A stretch of 64,000 nucleotides of DNA from Methanolobus psychrotolerans (GTDB lineage Archaea > Halobacteriota > Methanosarcinia > Methanosarcinales > Methanosarcinaceae). The notes beneath the pieces were generated by a model. It was not told the origin of the DNA and searched no databases. It saw nothing but the letters and a program-made list of their open reading frames with translations. Positions 13,630 through 21,903 of this stretch are shown here, in pieces (positions within the stretch are counted from its first letter, which is position 1; every line of letters starts with the position of its first letter). The stretch covers positions 62,001 to 126,000 of the forward strand of contig NZ_MBKP01000006.1 of NCBI RefSeq assembly GCF_002243045.1, given 5' to 3'. Position numbers and translations under genes: made by a program.

Positions 13630-14526
13630 TTATTTAGTAGTAACTTCGCATCCGTCATCTGTGACTATGAGAGTATGCTCTGTCTGAGAAACCATCCCAC
13701 CGGATACTTCCTTAAGTACCGGATATGAATGGACAATCCCGGCTTTTTCAAGCTGTATCAGGGCAAAATCAAGTTGGGGAGTATTAAGCCATCTTTTTGC
13801 AAACGGAAGGGTCCTGTAAGGTTCAAGCTCCTTGAGAAGAGCCCTCGCTGCTGGCAAACGCACAGGTTTTCGGTTTATGACCTGAAATATCTCTGTAAGG
13901 GAGCCATCCACAACTTTCCCAACACCATCTGTAGCAAAAGGTTCTATCGCTATGATGTCACCTGTATGAAGTACGACACCGTTGCTTACTCTTCTGTTGG
14001 GTACACTTGGATGTGCGTGAGGGATATACTGTGCAAGGCCATGTCCGGTAAGGTTTCCTACTGGCTTATAGTCGTGGGCAAGAATAGCATCTTCTATAGA
14101 AGCTCCGATGTCTGCCGTGTTTACACCATTTCGGACAGTATCGATCGCAGCTTGCAGCCCGTCCTCAGAAGCTTTCACAAGGTCGCTGTACTTACCAGAA
14201 AGATCGATGGTGATTGCAGAATCTGCAATGTAGCCATCCACATGGACCCCAAGATCAAGCTTAATTACATCTTCACCAAATACAGTTTGATCTCCGGCAA
14301 ATGGAGTTGCATGTGCGGCTTCATCATTACGGGAAATATTACATGGGAAAGCCGATCCATCCGCCCCGAGCTCAATAGCTCTGTTCTCTACGAACTCGGC
14401 TATTTCAAGAAGGCTGACATCCACCTTTATTAGGTCTCTTGCCTCGCTTCTTACCTGCGAGAGTATCTTTCCTGCTTTGACATATTTATCTATGATCTCT
14501 TCGATCTCCTGAACTTTGTCCGCCAT
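13630..14526 (-). CDS. map: Methionine aminopeptidase, type II
   Basis: 298-aa metalloprotease that removes initiator methionine. Metal ligands are recognisable in KLDLGVHVDGYIADSA (two Asp, about 85-100), the histidine of GHGLAQYIPHAHPSVPN (about 153-169), EPFATDG and the late QTEHT. The helical insert that defines type II is present after GHG. A strong AAGGAGAT site precedes the ATG. Head-to-tail with the exported-protein gene downstream and the Xaa-Pro peptidase upstream. Confidence 0.92.
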   Translation of the reverse strand: MADKVQEIEEIIDKYVKAGKILSQVRSEARDLIKVDVSLLEIAEFVENRAIELGADGSAFPCNISRNDEAAHATPFAGDQTVFGEDVIKLDLGVHVDGYIADSAITIDLSGKYSDLVKASEDGLQAAIDTVRNGVNTADIGASIEDAILAHDYKPVGNLTGHGLAQYIPHAHPSVPNRRVSNGVVLHTGDIIAIEPFATDGVGKVVDGSLTEIFQVINRKPVRLPAARALLKELEPYRTLPFAKRWLNTPQLDFALIQLEKAGIVHSYPVLKEVSGGMVSQTEHTLIVTDDGCEVTTK

Positions 14527-14560
14527 TTGAAATCTCCTTTATATAATTAATTTTTCAGGA

Positions 14561-15736
14561 CTAATATACAAACCTCTTTTCCATCTCTGTCAGATTCTCA
14601 AAACCATCTGAAGTTACAAGAACCATGTCCTCCAAACGTATGCCACCAACATCGGGATAGTACAGTCCCGGCTCGATTGTGATGACATTTCCTTCCTCAA
14701 GTGCAACCTCACTGTTGCCTACAAATGGAAGTTCATGTATCTCAAGCCCGACGCCATGTCCTGTGGAATGGATGAAACCTACATTTGACCCTTCCCGAAT
14801 AGTGTCGTAGCCTTTCTCTTTAAAGACATCACAGACTTTGTTGTGTATTTCGCTGCATTTGACCCCTGGTTTGACCATCTCTATGGCAATTTCCTGTGCT
14901 GCAAGGACAGCTTCGTACATGTCAGCTAGTTTTTCGGAAGGCTCGCCTTTGAGCACCGTCCGGGACATGTCGGCATAATACCTTTCTCTCTTGCTACGTG
15001 GAAAGATATCTATTACGATGGGCTCATTGGCCTTAAGAAGACCTGTGCCTACCCAGTGCGGATTTGCAGAGCCGGTACCACCGGCAACGATTGTACTCTC
15101 TGCCTCACAACCATGTTCAAGAAGAGTTATGTCTATTTCCTTGCGAATAATTTCAGATGTCAGGGCAAAGCCGTGGTAATTGAGTGTGCCTTCGACATCT
15201 TCGGACTTTCGGACCATCTCAACAGCCGCTTTCATTGCTGTGTTACAGGCATCCTGAACTTTTTTTATGGTCTTGATCTCTATAGGATCCTTTCTTGAAC
15301 GAAGTTGAGCAAAGGGACTTTTGATAGCCTCTATGGAGAAACCCTCTTCCTTGAGGGTCTGAGCAATATAATATGGGAAATCCCTGGGAACTGCAACTCT
15401 TCTTGCACCTTCCTTTTGCAGTATATGCGCAAGGCAGTCGCAATAGGCAAGAAATGGATCCTGTCTTTCCTTTACTTTTGACCTATAATCACAATCCTGT
15501 AGTGTGCGAATATCAGAAACCCTTGATTCTATCTCCGCCCTTCCTTTTTCCATGTCTGAAACAAGGATCGTTTCAGCTGCGCCTTTTGTATGAAAATAAG
15601 CGAACTCATCTGATGCAAAAAAACGGGTTGCGTAATAGATGTCTGCATTGTTCGAATTCCCTACCATCAGATATACATCTGACCTGTGGCTTTCCAGCAA
15701 TCCGGAAATATCAATGGGAACTGTTGTTGAGGTCAT
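14561..15736 (-). CDS. Xaa-Pro peptidase (M24B family)
   Basis: Creatinase-type N-terminal domain (about 1-140) followed by a pita-bread metallopeptidase core. Metal ligands fit IVIDIFPRSKRERYYADMSRT (two Asp, about 235-255), the GHGVGLEIHELPF histidine, TIEPGLYYP and the late GGIRLEDMV. The chosen ATG (15736) gives 391 aa; an upstream in-frame ATG at 15799 would add 21 unconserved residues. ATATAATATT directly before the start hints at a very short leader. The paralogous fold to the neighbouring map suggests local functional grouping in peptide turnover. Confidence 0.85.
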   Translation of the reverse strand: MTSTTVPIDISGLLESHRSDVYLMVGNSNNADIYYATRFFASDEFAYFHTKGAAETILVSDMEKGRAEIESRVSDIRTLQDCDYRSKVKERQDPFLAYCDCLAHILQKEGARRVAVPRDFPYYIAQTLKEEGFSIEAIKSPFAQLRSRKDPIEIKTIKKVQDACNTAMKAAVEMVRKSEDVEGTLNYHGFALTSEIIRKEIDITLLEHGCEAESTIVAGGTGSANPHWVGTGLLKANEPIVIDIFPRSKRERYYADMSRTVLKGEPSEKLADMYEAVLAAQEIAIEMVKPGVKCSEIHNKVCDVFKEKGYDTIREGSNVGFIHSTGHGVGLEIHELPFVGNSEVALEEGNVITIEPGLYYPDVGGIRLEDMVLVTSDGFENLTEMEKRFVY

Positions 15737-15951
15737 AATATTATATCTAGTAGTTACTAGTACAAAATTGTTATCAAATGCCCGGCTTGGAAAGGGCAAC
15801 CTAAAATCCCGGATGATTTGCAGACCGATGTATCAGAAAGTAATATGCTCATATCTCTGCAAGTATTAGTACATAGGACCTGTTTTTATGTCCATAAACA
15901 TACAAGAGATCCCCATTCTGGTTATATACAACTCCATAAATATCAGCTATT

Positions 15952-17922: not shown

Positions 17923-19878
17923 ATGATGAAAAAGAAATCCATCATACGGGAACTTGGAGAAGATGAGCTGCTCCTTCCATATCTTGTCAATGCCGCACTT
18001 CTTGCAAATGATAGGATCAAATATTACTTAACCTTGCTTCAGACCGCAAAGGCAAAAGCTGAACATCCTACCATGGAATTCCCTGACCTGAGGGTTGAGA
18101 GGGTCACTGCCGGTGAGAAGGATGCCGAGCTGGATAATACAGTCATGTCGTCCGTAAAACTGGATAGCGGGAAATTCATGATTCCATTCTCGGACAGGAT
18201 CATCGGCTACATCTGTGGCTGCATGGAAGATATGATCCGCCCTTTTGCTGTTTCAGACAAAACAAATGAAGAGGCCTTCACCCACAGATTCACAGAAATA
18301 TCCAGACTCCTGCCAGGACCTGATACTAAAGTGATCACCAATGAAGATATAACTATGATAACATCCGGAGACCGCGGACGCGGTGATAGCCTGCACATGC
18401 TGGTGATGGACCTGCACAAGTCCCTCAACAGATTGCAGGAAGAGATAGCCGGGGAGATCATAGATGGTGCAAGCACGTACATGCTCACTGATAACGACAA
18501 AGTCCTCGTAAAAGCTTTCATGAAAGGACTGAACCGTACCGCACCCCTGAAGTTCGGCCATCCGGGGCTGGGGACAACGGTCACACGAAGCGGCCAGAAA
18601 CTGCTGATACAGAACGATATAGGGGAAACGGATGCCCACGTTATGGTGATAAATGTCCAGGGAACAGATGCCTCAATGACCTACACCGATGTCCACATGC
18701 CCAGATTGCTGTTCTTCCAGAGCCTTTTCGATGCATACAGGGTTGAATGGGAAGACACGCTCTCCAAAAGCGCCTGTGAGCAATTAGAGGAAAGGATCTT
18801 TCATCTTTCCGTGGGGAAATACTCTGCCACGGACACGGACAAACTGGAAATATTCCTTGAACATCTGGGCTCAAGGATCGTCTTCCTTATCGACTGGAAC
18901 CGAGCACGTAAAAAGTTGCGTAATTTCATGCGCAACAGGGACTGCATCCAGGTGCTCAAGTGGGCTGCGGACAATGAGAAGGGTCATAGGGGTTTCCTGG
19001 TCCTTGGTGGGGAACAGCTTATATTCGAGTCCCTGGAGGTTGCATCCAAGATACCCATGCGCTACGGAGAGCCTTTGTATCAGGTCATAGGCGGGGAAAG
19101 GACCATGGAATTCTTCAAATGGGTCCTTGAAAGATCCTCTTCGGGCCTGTTGGAGAAACAGACCCACCTCTTCATACAGGACGAGATCAAAGCAGAGCTT
19201 CTCAGATACTTCCATTCGGCACACCAGGATCTTATGGAGCTCTGTTCCGAGCATGCATCCCTGATGGTGGAGATGGCTACCACGGTCAATGACACCCTTC
19301 TGCATATCCGGTATGGAGAAGATGCCGAGCTTGTAAGGAAGAATGCGAACAGGGCAAAAAAATGGGAAAAGGATGCCGACGAGCTGGTTAACAGGATCAG
19401 GTCATTGTCCCGCAGGATAGAGGTTGCAGAGTTCTTCACAACCCTGATAATGATTGCTGATGATGTAGTCGACTACATGGAGGAAGCGGCTTTTATGACC
19501 ACTATTGCAGTGGACACTGTGAGATCTGAGAACATCCGTACATGCCTGTGCTCAATAGCCGGAATGACCTTGAAAGGTTGCCAGGAGTTCTTGAAAGCCT
19601 TGTATGCTTCCCAGTACTTGACCCTCAGTTTTACCCCGGAGGAAATGCAGAACTTTCTCAAGTCCGTGAACCTTATCTTCGATGTGGAAGAGGAATGTGA
19701 TGCTGCTTTGCGTACTGCAAGGACCCACATTATAACAGAAAGCGCAGATTTCAGGGAATTGCACGTTGCCATGGAGATAGCCGTAAATCTCGAAAAGTCC
19801 ACCAACTCACTGATGAAAGCCTCTTTCACCATCAAGGACAACATCTTTGAGAGCCTCAACCTCTGGGGGATGCGCTGA
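17923..19878 (+). CDS. Large protein with C-terminal PhoU/DUF47-like helical domain
   Basis: 651 aa. The N-terminal two thirds are not recognised: an alpha/beta pattern with FVLGGEQLIFESL near residue 365 and no Walker motifs or membrane segments. The last 220 residues (about 430-650) are helical and resemble the PhoU/DUF47 fold, with repeated acidic metal-site-like clusters such as IMIADDVVDYMEEAAF and LIFDVEEECDAALR. PhoU-type proteins adjust phosphate uptake or phosphotransfer partners. The stop overlaps the start of the PPDK-like gene (TGATG), so the two products are made together and probably act together. The GC content looks higher than in the neighbours. Confidence 0.6.
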   Translation: MMKKKSIIRELGEDELLLPYLVNAALLANDRIKYYLTLLQTAKAKAEHPTMEFPDLRVERVTAGEKDAELDNTVMSSVKLDSGKFMIPFSDRIIGYICGCMEDMIRPFAVSDKTNEEAFTHRFTEISRLLPGPDTKVITNEDITMITSGDRGRGDSLHMLVMDLHKSLNRLQEEIAGEIIDGASTYMLTDNDKVLVKAFMKGLNRTAPLKFGHPGLGTTVTRSGQKLLIQNDIGETDAHVMVINVQGTDASMTYTDVHMPRLLFFQSLFDAYRVEWEDTLSKSACEQLEERIFHLSVGKYSATDTDKLEIFLEHLGSRIVFLIDWNRARKKLRNFMRNRDCIQVLKWAADNEKGHRGFLVLGGEQLIFESLEVASKIPMRYGEPLYQVIGGERTMEFFKWVLERSSSGLLEKQTHLFIQDEIKAELLRYFHSAHQDLMELCSEHASLMVEMATTVNDTLLHIRYGEDAELVRKNANRAKKWEKDADELVNRIRSLSRRIEVAEFFTTLIMIADDVVDYMEEAAFMTTIAVDTVRSENIRTCLCSIAGMTLKGCQEFLKALYASQYLTLSFTPEEMQNFLKSVNLIFDVEEECDAALRTARTHIITESADFRELHVAMEIAVNLEKSTNSLMKASFTIKDNIFESLNLWGMR

Positions 19879-21485
19879 TGGCGGATACTGCAGGCAGGAT
19901 GGTCACTTTCGGATATGGATACAGGACAGAAGCCCCTGTGGAGGAGTTCGGCAGAAAGGCATCTGTGCTTGCCGAGATGGCATCACTGGGCATACCTGTG
20001 CCGCCGGGATTCGTACTGAACGTTTCGGTATGCGAGGACTATTTCAAGAATTCCCGAAAACTTCCCCAGGATGTACCTGACCAGTTAAAGAATGGAATAT
20101 CTTTCCTTGAAAAGGCCACAGGGCTCTCTTTTGGAAGTGAGCGTAAGCCACTGCTCGTTTCTGTGAGGTCCGGGTCGGCAATATCGATGCCAGGTGCCAT
20201 GGAAACCGTACTCGACGTGGGACTGAACCATAATACGGTCAAAGGCCTCATATTTCAGACAGGAAGCCCGAGGTTTGCCTGGGATTCGTATCGCCGGATG
20301 TTTGAAAGTTTTGCAAGAACTGTATTTTCCCATGGAACTGAGCATTATTCCCCCCTGCTTGAGGAAATGATGGAGAGAGAAGGTATCTCCGAAGAAAGCG
20401 AACTTGACTCTTTCCTGTTGGAAGAACTGATAAGGGACTATGAACGCGTTTTCCAGAACAATGGCATGAAAAGGTTCCCTGTGGATAGTTATGAACAGCT
20501 CGGACTTGCGGTCACTGCGGTCCTGGATTCCTGGATGAGACCCAAGGCCCGGGAATACCGCAGGATGGAAGCCGCCCAAAAGGTCCGGGGAACGGCCGTG
20601 ACGGTCCAAGCCATGGTGTTCGGGAATAGAGGACCGCACTCCGGAGCAGGTATCATTTTCACACGTAACCCCTGGTTGGGGGAGAACTGCCTTGTGATCG
20701 ATTTCAAGTTCGGCGTACAGGGAGAGGACTTAGTCTCAGGCTACCGGGCAGGGACAAAGAAAATGGAATTGAAAGAGGTGCTGCCCGACGTGCATAAAGA
20801 CCTTGTGAAATTCGGGAAGATCCTTGAGATGTACTACAGGGACATGCAGGACATAGAGTTCACCATCCAGGAGGGAAGATTGTACATTCTGCAGAGCAGG
20901 GAGGGCAAAAGGGCACCCTTTGCAGCCCTCCGGATTGCAGTGGATATGGTTGACGAAGGGCTCATAGATACAAAAATTGCTCTGGAGCGGATTAAAGGGA
21001 TCGACTTGGATGACATCACCATGCAGGAGATCGTCTCAAAGGAGAGGGTCATCGGGAAGGGAGATCCTGCATCATCTGGAGTTACCAGCGGAAGGATCGC
21101 TCTTTCTAACAAGAAGGCGGAAAGTTTGTCAACGGAAGGCAGGGTGATACTTGTAAGGGAAATGCCCTCTTCTGAGGATATAATAGGTATCAGGGCAGCC
21201 AGCGGATATCTGACAGCCAGAGGGGCAAGGACCGCACATGCGGCTGTCGTTGCGCGCCAGATGGGGAAGGTCTGCATAGTCAACTGTATGGACTTGCACA
21301 CAGAACCTGATTCAGGAAGATGCACCATAGGAACACAAGAGCTGTGTGAGGGGGACACCATAAGCATTGACGGGATTTCCGGTCATGTTTATGAGGGTGA
21401 GGTAGAGATAGAATATGAAAGACCGCTGGAGCTCCTTTCCAGGGTTGGGGAGTGGAAAGAGTTAGCCGGGAAAAAATCTATTTAA
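19878..21485 (+). CDS. PPDK-like protein lacking the PEP/pyruvate domain
   Basis: 535 aa, matching only the first two domains of pyruvate phosphate dikinase. An ATP-grasp nucleotide-binding region opens with GRKASVLAEMASLGIPVPPGF-type sequence, contains RSGSAISMPGAMETVLDVG (about 96-114) and the late EFTIQEGRLYILQSREGKR, and is followed by a swivelling phosphohistidine domain with GARTAHAAVVARQMGK, catalytic His near residue 454. The TIM barrel that binds PEP or pyruvate is absent and the ORF ends cleanly, so the acceptor must be something else, plausibly the coupled upstream protein. It is not a simple PPDK or PEP synthase. Confidence 0.75.
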   Translation: MADTAGRMVTFGYGYRTEAPVEEFGRKASVLAEMASLGIPVPPGFVLNVSVCEDYFKNSRKLPQDVPDQLKNGISFLEKATGLSFGSERKPLLVSVRSGSAISMPGAMETVLDVGLNHNTVKGLIFQTGSPRFAWDSYRRMFESFARTVFSHGTEHYSPLLEEMMEREGISEESELDSFLLEELIRDYERVFQNNGMKRFPVDSYEQLGLAVTAVLDSWMRPKAREYRRMEAAQKVRGTAVTVQAMVFGNRGPHSGAGIIFTRNPWLGENCLVIDFKFGVQGEDLVSGYRAGTKKMELKEVLPDVHKDLVKFGKILEMYYRDMQDIEFTIQEGRLYILQSREGKRAPFAALRIAVDMVDEGLIDTKIALERIKGIDLDDITMQEIVSKERVIGKGDPASSGVTSGRIALSNKKAESLSTEGRVILVREMPSSEDIIGIRAASGYLTARGARTAHAAVVARQMGKVCIVNCMDLHTEPDSGRCTIGTQELCEGDTISIDGISGHVYEGEVEIEYERPLELLSRVGEWKELAGKKSI

Positions 21486-21540: not shown

Positions 21541-21903
21541 TTAACATGTCAGATGAAACAGCCCGATAGCCTTGCCTTCTGCTTCGTTCCATTTCTTGAT
21601 CGCTTCAGAGGTTGGCATCAGTTCCACATCACACCCCTTTTTTCTGAGATATGCATCCGCCTTTTTGGAGATCTTCACCATACCTTCCTGGCCTGAACCT
21701 ATTATGATCCTCTCAGCCCCTTTCTCGTAAACATATTTTGCTTCTTCCACGGATATCTTGTGGGACGTGCCATAGACTTCCCTGGATAGCTTCTTCTTGC
21801 GCTTCTTTACATCACCATCCAGACGAATGATGATGTCTTTCTCAAAAGTCTTACCTTCTACAGTAATGCTTCCAAATTCGGTTGCTTCTATGTTGGGTTT
21901 CAT
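21541..21903 (-). CDS. Mth938-like (DUF498) protein
   Basis: 120 aa of the Mth938/NDUFAF3-like fold. Features are FGSITVEGKTFEKDIIIR at the N-terminus and GAERIIIGSGQEGMVKIS in the middle (about 65-82), typical of this small cytosolic family. Biochemical function is unassigned. A strong GGGGACAGGAG ribosome site precedes the ATG. It is convergent with the PPDK-like gene. Confidence 0.8.
   Translation of the reverse strand: MKPNIEATEFGSITVEGKTFEKDIIIRLDGDVKKRKKKLSREVYGTSHKISVEEAKYVYEKGAERIIIGSGQEGMVKISKKADAYLRKKGCDVELMPTSEAIKKWNEAEGKAIGLFHLTC

What the first reader, a model, noticed from the sequence alone, without database searches (positions are those of the whole stretch)
17923..21485. Two-gene phosphotransfer system: DUF47-tailed protein plus PPDK without PEP domain
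Two translationally coupled genes encode a 651-aa protein ending in a PhoU/DUF47-like domain and a 535-aa enzyme with the ATP-grasp and phosphohistidine domains of PPDK but no PEP/pyruvate barrel. The catalytic His is kept. By analogy with rifampicin phosphotransferase, which uses the same two domains on another acceptor, the phosphate may pass to the partner protein or a ligand it holds. This would be a new phosphorelay or nucleotide-driven switch.
Basis: partly seen in the sequence, partly recalled or inferred. Interest (0 to 1): 0.65.

Follow-up and report, generated by a model that had tools for sequence, protein, structure and literature searches.

The report
PPDK-half kinase with PhoU-tailed partner
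Some methanogens and a few bacteria carry an inseparable gene pair, an ATP-driven phosphohistidine enzyme that lacks the usual pyruvate site and a conserved partner protein of unknown fold, and in several lineages the pair sits inside polyphosphate-handling gene clusters, which suggests an undescribed phosphate-transfer system in phosphate storage or sensing.

Summary
A (17923-19878, 651 aa) ends in a DUF47/PhoU fold. B (19878-21485, 535 aa) is the ATP-grasp plus phosphohistidine half of PPDK, with catalytic His454 and the ATP-site residues kept and no PEP barrel. The genes overlap by one base (TGATG).

A and B occur in the same 21 of 393 phylum genomes, never one without the other. B follows A directly in every locus examined, including two proteobacterial plasmids. 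His454 is invariant in 24 B sequences. No free-standing barrel exists in 14 pair genomes.

New here: the pair lies in polyphosphate/phosphate loci in several lineages (PPK1-CHAD-Ppx-A-B with SixA convergent; PPK1-CHAD-phosphoesterase-A-B; CYTH-CHAD, PhoU or Pst genes elsewhere). In the window genome it stands alone.

Best explanation: a two-component PPDK-type dikinase. B charges His454 from ATP plus Pi, and A supplies the second phosphoryl site through its conserved N-terminal domain, acting in phosphate/polyphosphate metabolism. A's role and the acceptor are inferred. Works like HpeHI/PpsAB, but the split differs, the grasp domain is PPDK-type and the partner is unrelated. New variant of a known kind; no earlier description found in the held papers.

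The parts
17923..19878 (+). Gene A: 651-aa protein, novel N-terminal domain plus DUF47/PhoU-like C-terminal domain
   Evidence: ORF; present in the same 21 of 393 genomes as B; 25-sequence alignment
18373..19002 (+). Conserved core of A (aa 151-360): D155, H158, D163, H165, E178, H213, QND 230-232, H239, D256, H258, R261, D324, N326, R329, K330, H355; candidate second-substrate (acceptor) site
   Evidence: 44 of 210 positions invariant in 25 sequences against 11 of 211 in the DUF47 part; no solved-structure match by profile; only weak YbjN-like fold similarity
19243..19875 (+). DUF47/PhoU-like domain of A (aa 441-651) with conserved D486, R493, D513, D517, E520, E589, D593, R597
   Evidence: Pfam PF01865 sub-threshold; profile match to 3l39 E 6.7e-5; Foldseek 3l39/2olt prob 1.00, E 0.015-0.15
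19876..19880 (+). TGATG: stop of A overlaps start of B by one base (translational coupling likely)
19878..21485 (+). Gene B: 535-aa PPDK-type ATP-grasp plus phosphohistidine protein without PEP/pyruvate barrel
   Evidence: own clade, support 1.0
19935..20912 (+). ATP-grasp domain of B (aa about 20-345), with K27, R97, D325, E327, Q339, R341
21030..21407 (+). Swivelling phosphohistidine domain of B (aa about 385-510)
   Evidence: PEP-utilizers PF00391 at aa 422-502; match to the solved PPDK His domain 2fm4
21237..21239 (+). Codon of His454, the equivalent of the PPDK catalytic histidine (motif GARTxHAAVVAR)
   Evidence: invariant in 24 of 24 B sequences

Best explanation
A-B is a two-component dikinase of the PPDK type that works in phosphate/polyphosphate metabolism. 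B binds ATP in its grasp domain and, like the first half of PPDK, moves a phosphoryl group onto His454, using Pi and releasing AMP and PPi (inferred from the conserved residues). The His domain then swivels, not to a pyruvate barrel, which is absent, but to A. A's conserved N-terminal domain holds the second substrate and takes the phosphoryl group (or gives it, since the PPDK half-reaction is reversible). A's PhoU-like tail probably senses phosphate or metal, or tethers the complex. From gene context the second substrate is most likely polyphosphate or another inorganic phosphate species. Shown: the obligate pair, intact kinase-half residues, lack of a barrel, the conserved N-domain core, the gene context. 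Inferred: catalysis, contact between A and B, acceptor, direction.
For: Same 21 of 393 phylum genomes carry full-length A and short B, none carries one alone; B (527-634 aa frames, 760-872 bits) is cleanly separated from full-length PPDK (881-1008 aa, 529-638 bits). B directly downstream of A on the same strand in 26 loci (25 distinct), including Methylocella and Aquabacterium plasmids. A and B distances correlate at r 0.94. Catalytic and ATP-site residues kept, B a clade of its own with support 1.0. No lone barrel in 14 pair genomes. Context: PPK1-CHAD/HD-Ppx-A-B with SixA convergent (L078); PPK1-CHAD-metallophosphoesterase/Ppx-III-A-B (L047, L048); Ppx, CHAD and PPK1 divergent from A-B (L058); SixA next to B in L059 and L064; CYTH-CHAD, PhoU, PstS (L012, L011); pstSCA divergent (L066). 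PPK1 within 10 kb in 4 of 7 pair genomes with both on one contig, 0 of 29 for full-length PPDK. PPK1 in 20 of 21 pair genomes versus 138 of 393 overall.
Against: Many loci, the window included, have no phosphate or polyphosphate gene nearby, and in Methylocella the pair follows fatty-acid oxidation genes. PPK1 co-occurrence is confounded by clade: most pair genomes come from one family rich in PPK1. No known polyphosphate-binding motif was found in A. Physical contact of A and B and any activity are untested. The A model is of moderate confidence (pLDDT 74.7, pTM 0.60).
Confidence: 0.48

Rival explanations
1. Regulatory phosphate/energy sensor. The phosphorylation level of B follows [ATP][Pi]/[AMP][PPi], so B is a natural phosphate gauge; B passes the phosphoryl group to a histidine of A, whose PhoU-like domain then controls phosphate uptake or polyphosphate enzymes, and SixA removes the mark.
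For: PhoU-like domain in A; SixA phosphohistidine phosphatase next to B in L059, L064 and L078; PstS, PhoU or pst genes near A-B in L011, L012, L059, L066.
Against: A's N-terminal core (44 of 210 residues invariant, many D/H/N/R/K) looks more like a substrate or catalytic site than a receiver. SixA is adjacent in only a few loci of one family.
Confidence: 0.24
2. Metabolic small-molecule kinase: A binds an organic alcohol, phenol or acid that receives the phosphoryl group, as in HpeHI, CreHI and PpsAB; the polyphosphate neighbourhood is secondary.
For: Same logic of a separately encoded acceptor component in known two-component dikinases (PMC12167813); Methylocella pair downstream of beta-oxidation genes.
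Against: A has no sequence or fold similarity to rifampin-type acceptor domains in PDB searches; PPK1, CHAD, Ppx, Pst and SixA recur instead of catabolic genes.
Confidence: 0.17
3. B is an ordinary PPDK fragment that works with a barrel encoded elsewhere, or a decaying PPDK copy.
For: B is homologous to PPDK over its whole length.
Against: No lone barrel in 14 pair genomes, and the pair genomes outside family f1 show no full-length PPDK hit beside B; near-constant length (525-568 aa, one ORF of 629 with an upstream start), intact catalytic residues, separate clade, obligate partner.
Confidence: 0.04

Closest known systems
Pyruvate, phosphate dikinase (PPDK; TIGR01828)
   Same: Same ATP-grasp and phosphohistidine domains in the same order, same catalytic and ATP-site residues, near-gapless alignment to the solved enzymes.
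   Different: No PEP/pyruvate barrel; motif GARTxHAAVVARQ instead of GGMTSHAAVVARG; obligate partner A; separate clade.
Two-component small-molecule dikinases HpeHI, CreHI, PpsAB (phenylphosphate synthase) (PMC12167813)
   Same: ATP grasp and acceptor site on separately encoded proteins, with a swivelling His carrying the phosphoryl group between them.
   Different: There the His domain is fused to the acceptor component and the grasp domain is PEP-synthase-like; here the His domain stays with a PPDK-type grasp domain and the partner is an unrelated protein with a PhoU-like tail.
Rifampin phosphotransferase (RPH; PMC4844700)
   Same: ATP-grasp plus swivelling His domain used on an acceptor other than pyruvate.
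   Different: Single chain with its own rifampin-binding domain; no A-like partner.
DUF47/PhoU-like phosphate regulators (3l39, 2olt)
   Same: C-terminal about 210 residues of A share the helical fold and PhoU-type acidic motifs.
   Different: A adds a 440-residue conserved N-terminal part with no known family and is tied to B.
Polyphosphate gene clusters (PPK1, Ppx, CHAD; CHAD binds polyphosphate, PMC6537752)
   Same: A-B is embedded in such clusters in several archaeal lineages.
   Different: A dikinase-type pair is not described as part of them in the papers found.

Membership tests
PPDK | ATP-grasp domain with conserved nucleotide/Mg residues | tested here: met
   K27, R97, E327, Q339, R341 in 24 of 24, D325 in 23 of 24
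PPDK | Phosphohistidine swivel domain with catalytic His | tested here: met
   His454 in 24 of 24
PPDK | C-terminal PEP/pyruvate barrel, in cis or in trans | tested here: not met
   B ends after the swivel domain; no lone PF02896 frame in 14 pair genomes
PPDK | NCBIfam TIGR01828 cut-off reached | tested here: not met
   544 bits against 843 required, half the model covered
Two-component small-molecule dikinase (HpeHI/CreHI/PpsAB type) | Two obligately linked genes, one with the ATP grasp, the other with the acceptor side | tested here: inconclusive
   Two obligately linked genes shown; that A is the acceptor side is inferred
Two-component small-molecule dikinase (HpeHI/CreHI/PpsAB type) | His swivel domain carried by the acceptor component together with an RPH-like acceptor domain | tested here: not met
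   Swivel domain is on B with the grasp domain; A has no RPH-like match by profile or fold
Two-component small-molecule dikinase (HpeHI/CreHI/PpsAB type) | ATP-dependent phosphorylation of a small molecule | not testable with these tools
   needs biochemistry
DUF47/PhoU_div | PhoU-like helical domain over the Pfam cut-off | tested here: inconclusive
   19 bits, cut-off 24.4, but profile match to 3l39 E 6.7e-5 and fold match prob 1.00 at E 0.015
Polyphosphate metabolism cluster | Genomic linkage to PPK1, Ppx or CHAD genes beyond chance | tested here: met
   PPK1 within 10 kb in 4 of 7 same-contig pair genomes vs 0 of 29 for full-length PPDK; operon-like runs in L047, L048, L064, L078. Not met in the window locus itself
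Polyphosphate metabolism cluster | Activity on polyphosphate | not testable with these tools
   needs biochemistry

The most novel reading that the evidence does not exclude
A-B is a new enzyme of polyphosphate metabolism: a phosphohistidine polyphosphate dikinase that links polyphosphate to the ATP/AMP/PPi pool (ATP + Pi + polyPn to AMP + PPi + polyPn+1, or the reverse, making ATP from AMP, PPi and polyphosphate), mechanistically distinct from PPK1 and PPK2.
Probability: 0.22. Interest if true: 0.82.

Novelty: new variant of a known kind. Interest (0 to 1): 0.62.

Why it matters
It would show the PPDK kinase half re-used with a separately encoded, previously unknown acceptor protein, and would add a new ATP-linked player to archaeal and bacterial phosphate or polyphosphate handling, where few enzymes are known and several archaeal steps are unassigned. 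The conserved N-terminal domain of A (no known fold match) is a concrete new enzyme or receptor family to solve, and a 'pyruvate phosphate dikinase' annotation for such short proteins is probably wrong.

Tried and rejected
Fragment or pseudogene of PPDK: rejected by near-constant length, intact residues, clade support and the obligate partner. Barrel supplied in trans: rejected, every PF02896 match in 14 pair genomes lies in a frame of 758-912 aa. Rifampicin-type acceptor domain in A: no profile or fold match. Anti-phage defence: no meaningful PADLOC hit and no phage homologue of A. Known fold for the N-terminal part of A: full-length and N-domain AlphaFold models (pLDDT 74.7 and 73.0) gave only weak YbjN-like matches, TM about 0.4, E at best 0.025. 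Bacterial distribution could not be mapped well: genome contigs allows one scan, and its peptide patterns found only Methanosarcina; 'of' with a plasmid locus is not accepted. The IMG/VR hit L065/L066 is host DNA (pst genes) beside phage tail genes, not a phage gene. Promoter and terminator scans were at the shuffle level.

Full report
Observation. Two ORFs lie exactly where described: A, 17923-19878 (651 aa), and B, 19878-21485 (535 aa); the stop of A and start of B overlap in TGATG. B carries PPDK_N and the phosphohistidine mobile domain and nothing more; PPDK model TIGR01828 aligns only to positions 16-511 of 865, and the alignment to solved PPDKs is near-gapless up to the end of the His domain. 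A has one sub-threshold Pfam hit, DUF47/PhoU_div at aa 442-637. A 14-sequence profile finds one solved structure, the PhoU-like 3l39 (E 6.7e-5, positions 439-643), and the AlphaFold model (pLDDT 74.7, pTM 0.60) matches the same fold family with probability 1.00, though Foldseek E-values are only 0.015-0.15. The N-terminal 440 residues match no family; the N-domain model gives only weak YbjN-like similarity.

Host. The genome is 3.16 Mb; its family (f1) includes a genome whose contig has the same length as a record of Methanosarcina sp. Ant1 and gives the same match (G145:C66 and MDTP02000066.1), so the window is most likely a Methanosarcinaceae genome of another genus. It also has a full-length PPDK (912-aa frame) and two other full-length barrel enzymes of 808 and 822 aa.

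Is the pair real? A full-length A was found in 21 of 393 genomes drawn across the phylum (six further genomes have only weak partial matches). An independent search with B found two sharply separated groups: short B, frames 527-634 aa at 760-872 bits, in exactly those same 21 genomes, and full-length PPDK, frames 881-1008 aa at 529-638 bits, in the other matching genomes and beside B in two of the 21 (one genome, G003, has a PPDK broken into two frames). In 26 fetched loci (L012 and L046 are the same region, so 25 distinct) B lies directly downstream of A on the same strand, including plasmids of Methylocella tundrae and Aquabacterium olei; the same holds in L066, L078 and L079. Two MAG contigs (L010, L013) and G437 have A split into pieces by frameshifts. 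Pairwise distances of A and B over 24 loci correlate at r 0.94; part of this is simply shared ancestry.

Is B a working kinase half? In 24 B sequences His454, K27, R97, E327, Q339 and R341 never vary, D325 varies once, and B forms one clade (support 1.0) apart from full-length PPDK and from the actinobacterial PPDK-like proteins sampled. B ends about 20-30 residues after the swivel domain in every member. In 14 pair genomes all PEP barrel domains sit in frames of 758-912 aa, the size of full-length PPDK or PEP synthase.

What is A? Conservation is concentrated in aa 151-360: 44 of 210 positions are invariant in 25 archaeal and bacterial sequences, against 11 of 211 in the DUF47 part. The invariant polar residues there include D155, H158, D163, H165, E178, H213, Q230, N231, D232, H239, D256, H258, R261, D324, N326, R329, K330 and H355. 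Such a set is typical of a substrate-binding or catalytic site (inference). The DUF47 part keeps PhoU-type acidic motifs (D513/D517/E520, E589/D593).

Context. In genome G361 the order is PPK1, CHAD-HD, Ppx/GppA exopolyphosphatase, A, B, then convergent SixA (L078). In G226 PPK1 and an HD/Ppx-III-like gene lie just upstream of A on its strand, and SixA follows B (L064). In G060 and G032 of another family the run is PPK1, CHAD, metallophosphoesterase/Ppx-III, A, B on one strand. In G312 Ppx, CHAD-phosphoesterase and PPK1 are divergent from A-B. CYTH-CHAD, PhoU and PstS flank the pair in Methanosarcina sp. Ant1, PstS in L011, SixA, PhoU and PstS in L059, and pstSCA is divergent from a bacterial A-B in L066. 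With PPK1 and the gene of interest on one contig, PPK1 lies within 10 kb of A in 4 of 7 pair genomes but of full-length PPDK in 0 of 29 (my count from the coordinates). PPK1 occurs in 20 of 21 pair genomes against 138 of 393 overall (Fisher 5e-9, not corrected for kinship). Against this, more than half of the loci, the window included, show no such neighbour, and the Methylocella pair follows beta-oxidation genes.

Mechanism. PPDK works in steps: ATP and Pi charge the His with release of AMP and PPi, then the His domain swivels to a second site (established for PPDK; PMC5371819, PMC8100219). B keeps the first half and lacks the second site. Because A accompanies B without exception and carries a conserved core, A most likely supplies the second site. 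From context the second substrate is most likely an inorganic phosphate species, polyphosphate first. Known two-component dikinases (HpeHI, CreHI, PpsAB; PMC12167813) show that separate acceptor components exist, but there the His domain sits on the acceptor protein and the grasp domain is PEP-synthase-like, so A-B is a different split. A regulatory reading (B as Pi/energy gauge, A as PhoU-like effector, SixA as eraser) is the main rival. Neither catalysis nor contact between A and B could be tested here.

Novelty. CHAD domains are known to bind polyphosphate and to lie in polyphosphate gene clusters (PMC6537752), and methanogens make polyphosphate and carry PPK1 (PMC6864096), but no paper in the held library that I could find describes a PPDK-half/DUF47 pair. 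That is absence from one library, not proof of novelty.

Noticed in passing
L078:479-10207: Compact polyphosphate cluster in genome G361: PPK1, CHAD-HD, Ppx/GppA, A, B in overlapping or adjacent frames, SixA convergent; a good locus for experimental work.
   Followed up: yes
L047:2703-3200 and L048:472-990: Conserved 165-172 aa protein without Pfam match just upstream of PPK1 in the same run as A-B.
   Followed up: no
L049, L050, L052-L057 downstream of B: Recurrent convergent block in one archaeal family: FAD-dependent oxidoreductase, a protein of about 320 aa without Pfam match (tested in L049), a protein of about 250 aa and a TrmB-like regulator next to B.
   Followed up: partly
L074:4345-6689 and L076:4932-10297: Rhodococcus and M. 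avium plasmids carry PPDK-like proteins of about 540-580 aa beside a 201-202 aa protein without Pfam match and a separate PEP-utilizing enzyme; a second, unrelated kind of short PPDK.
   Followed up: partly
window 21541-21903 and L011:7297-7659: A 120-aa protein that looks alike in both lies just downstream of B, on the opposite strand in the window.
   Followed up: no
L066: IMG/VR contig is listed as viral but holds bacterial pst genes and A-B beside phage tail genes: probably a prophage edge.
   Followed up: partly
window 13630-15799: Two adjacent minus-strand genes that look like methionine aminopeptidase and a second M24-type (Xaa-Pro) peptidase.
   Followed up: no
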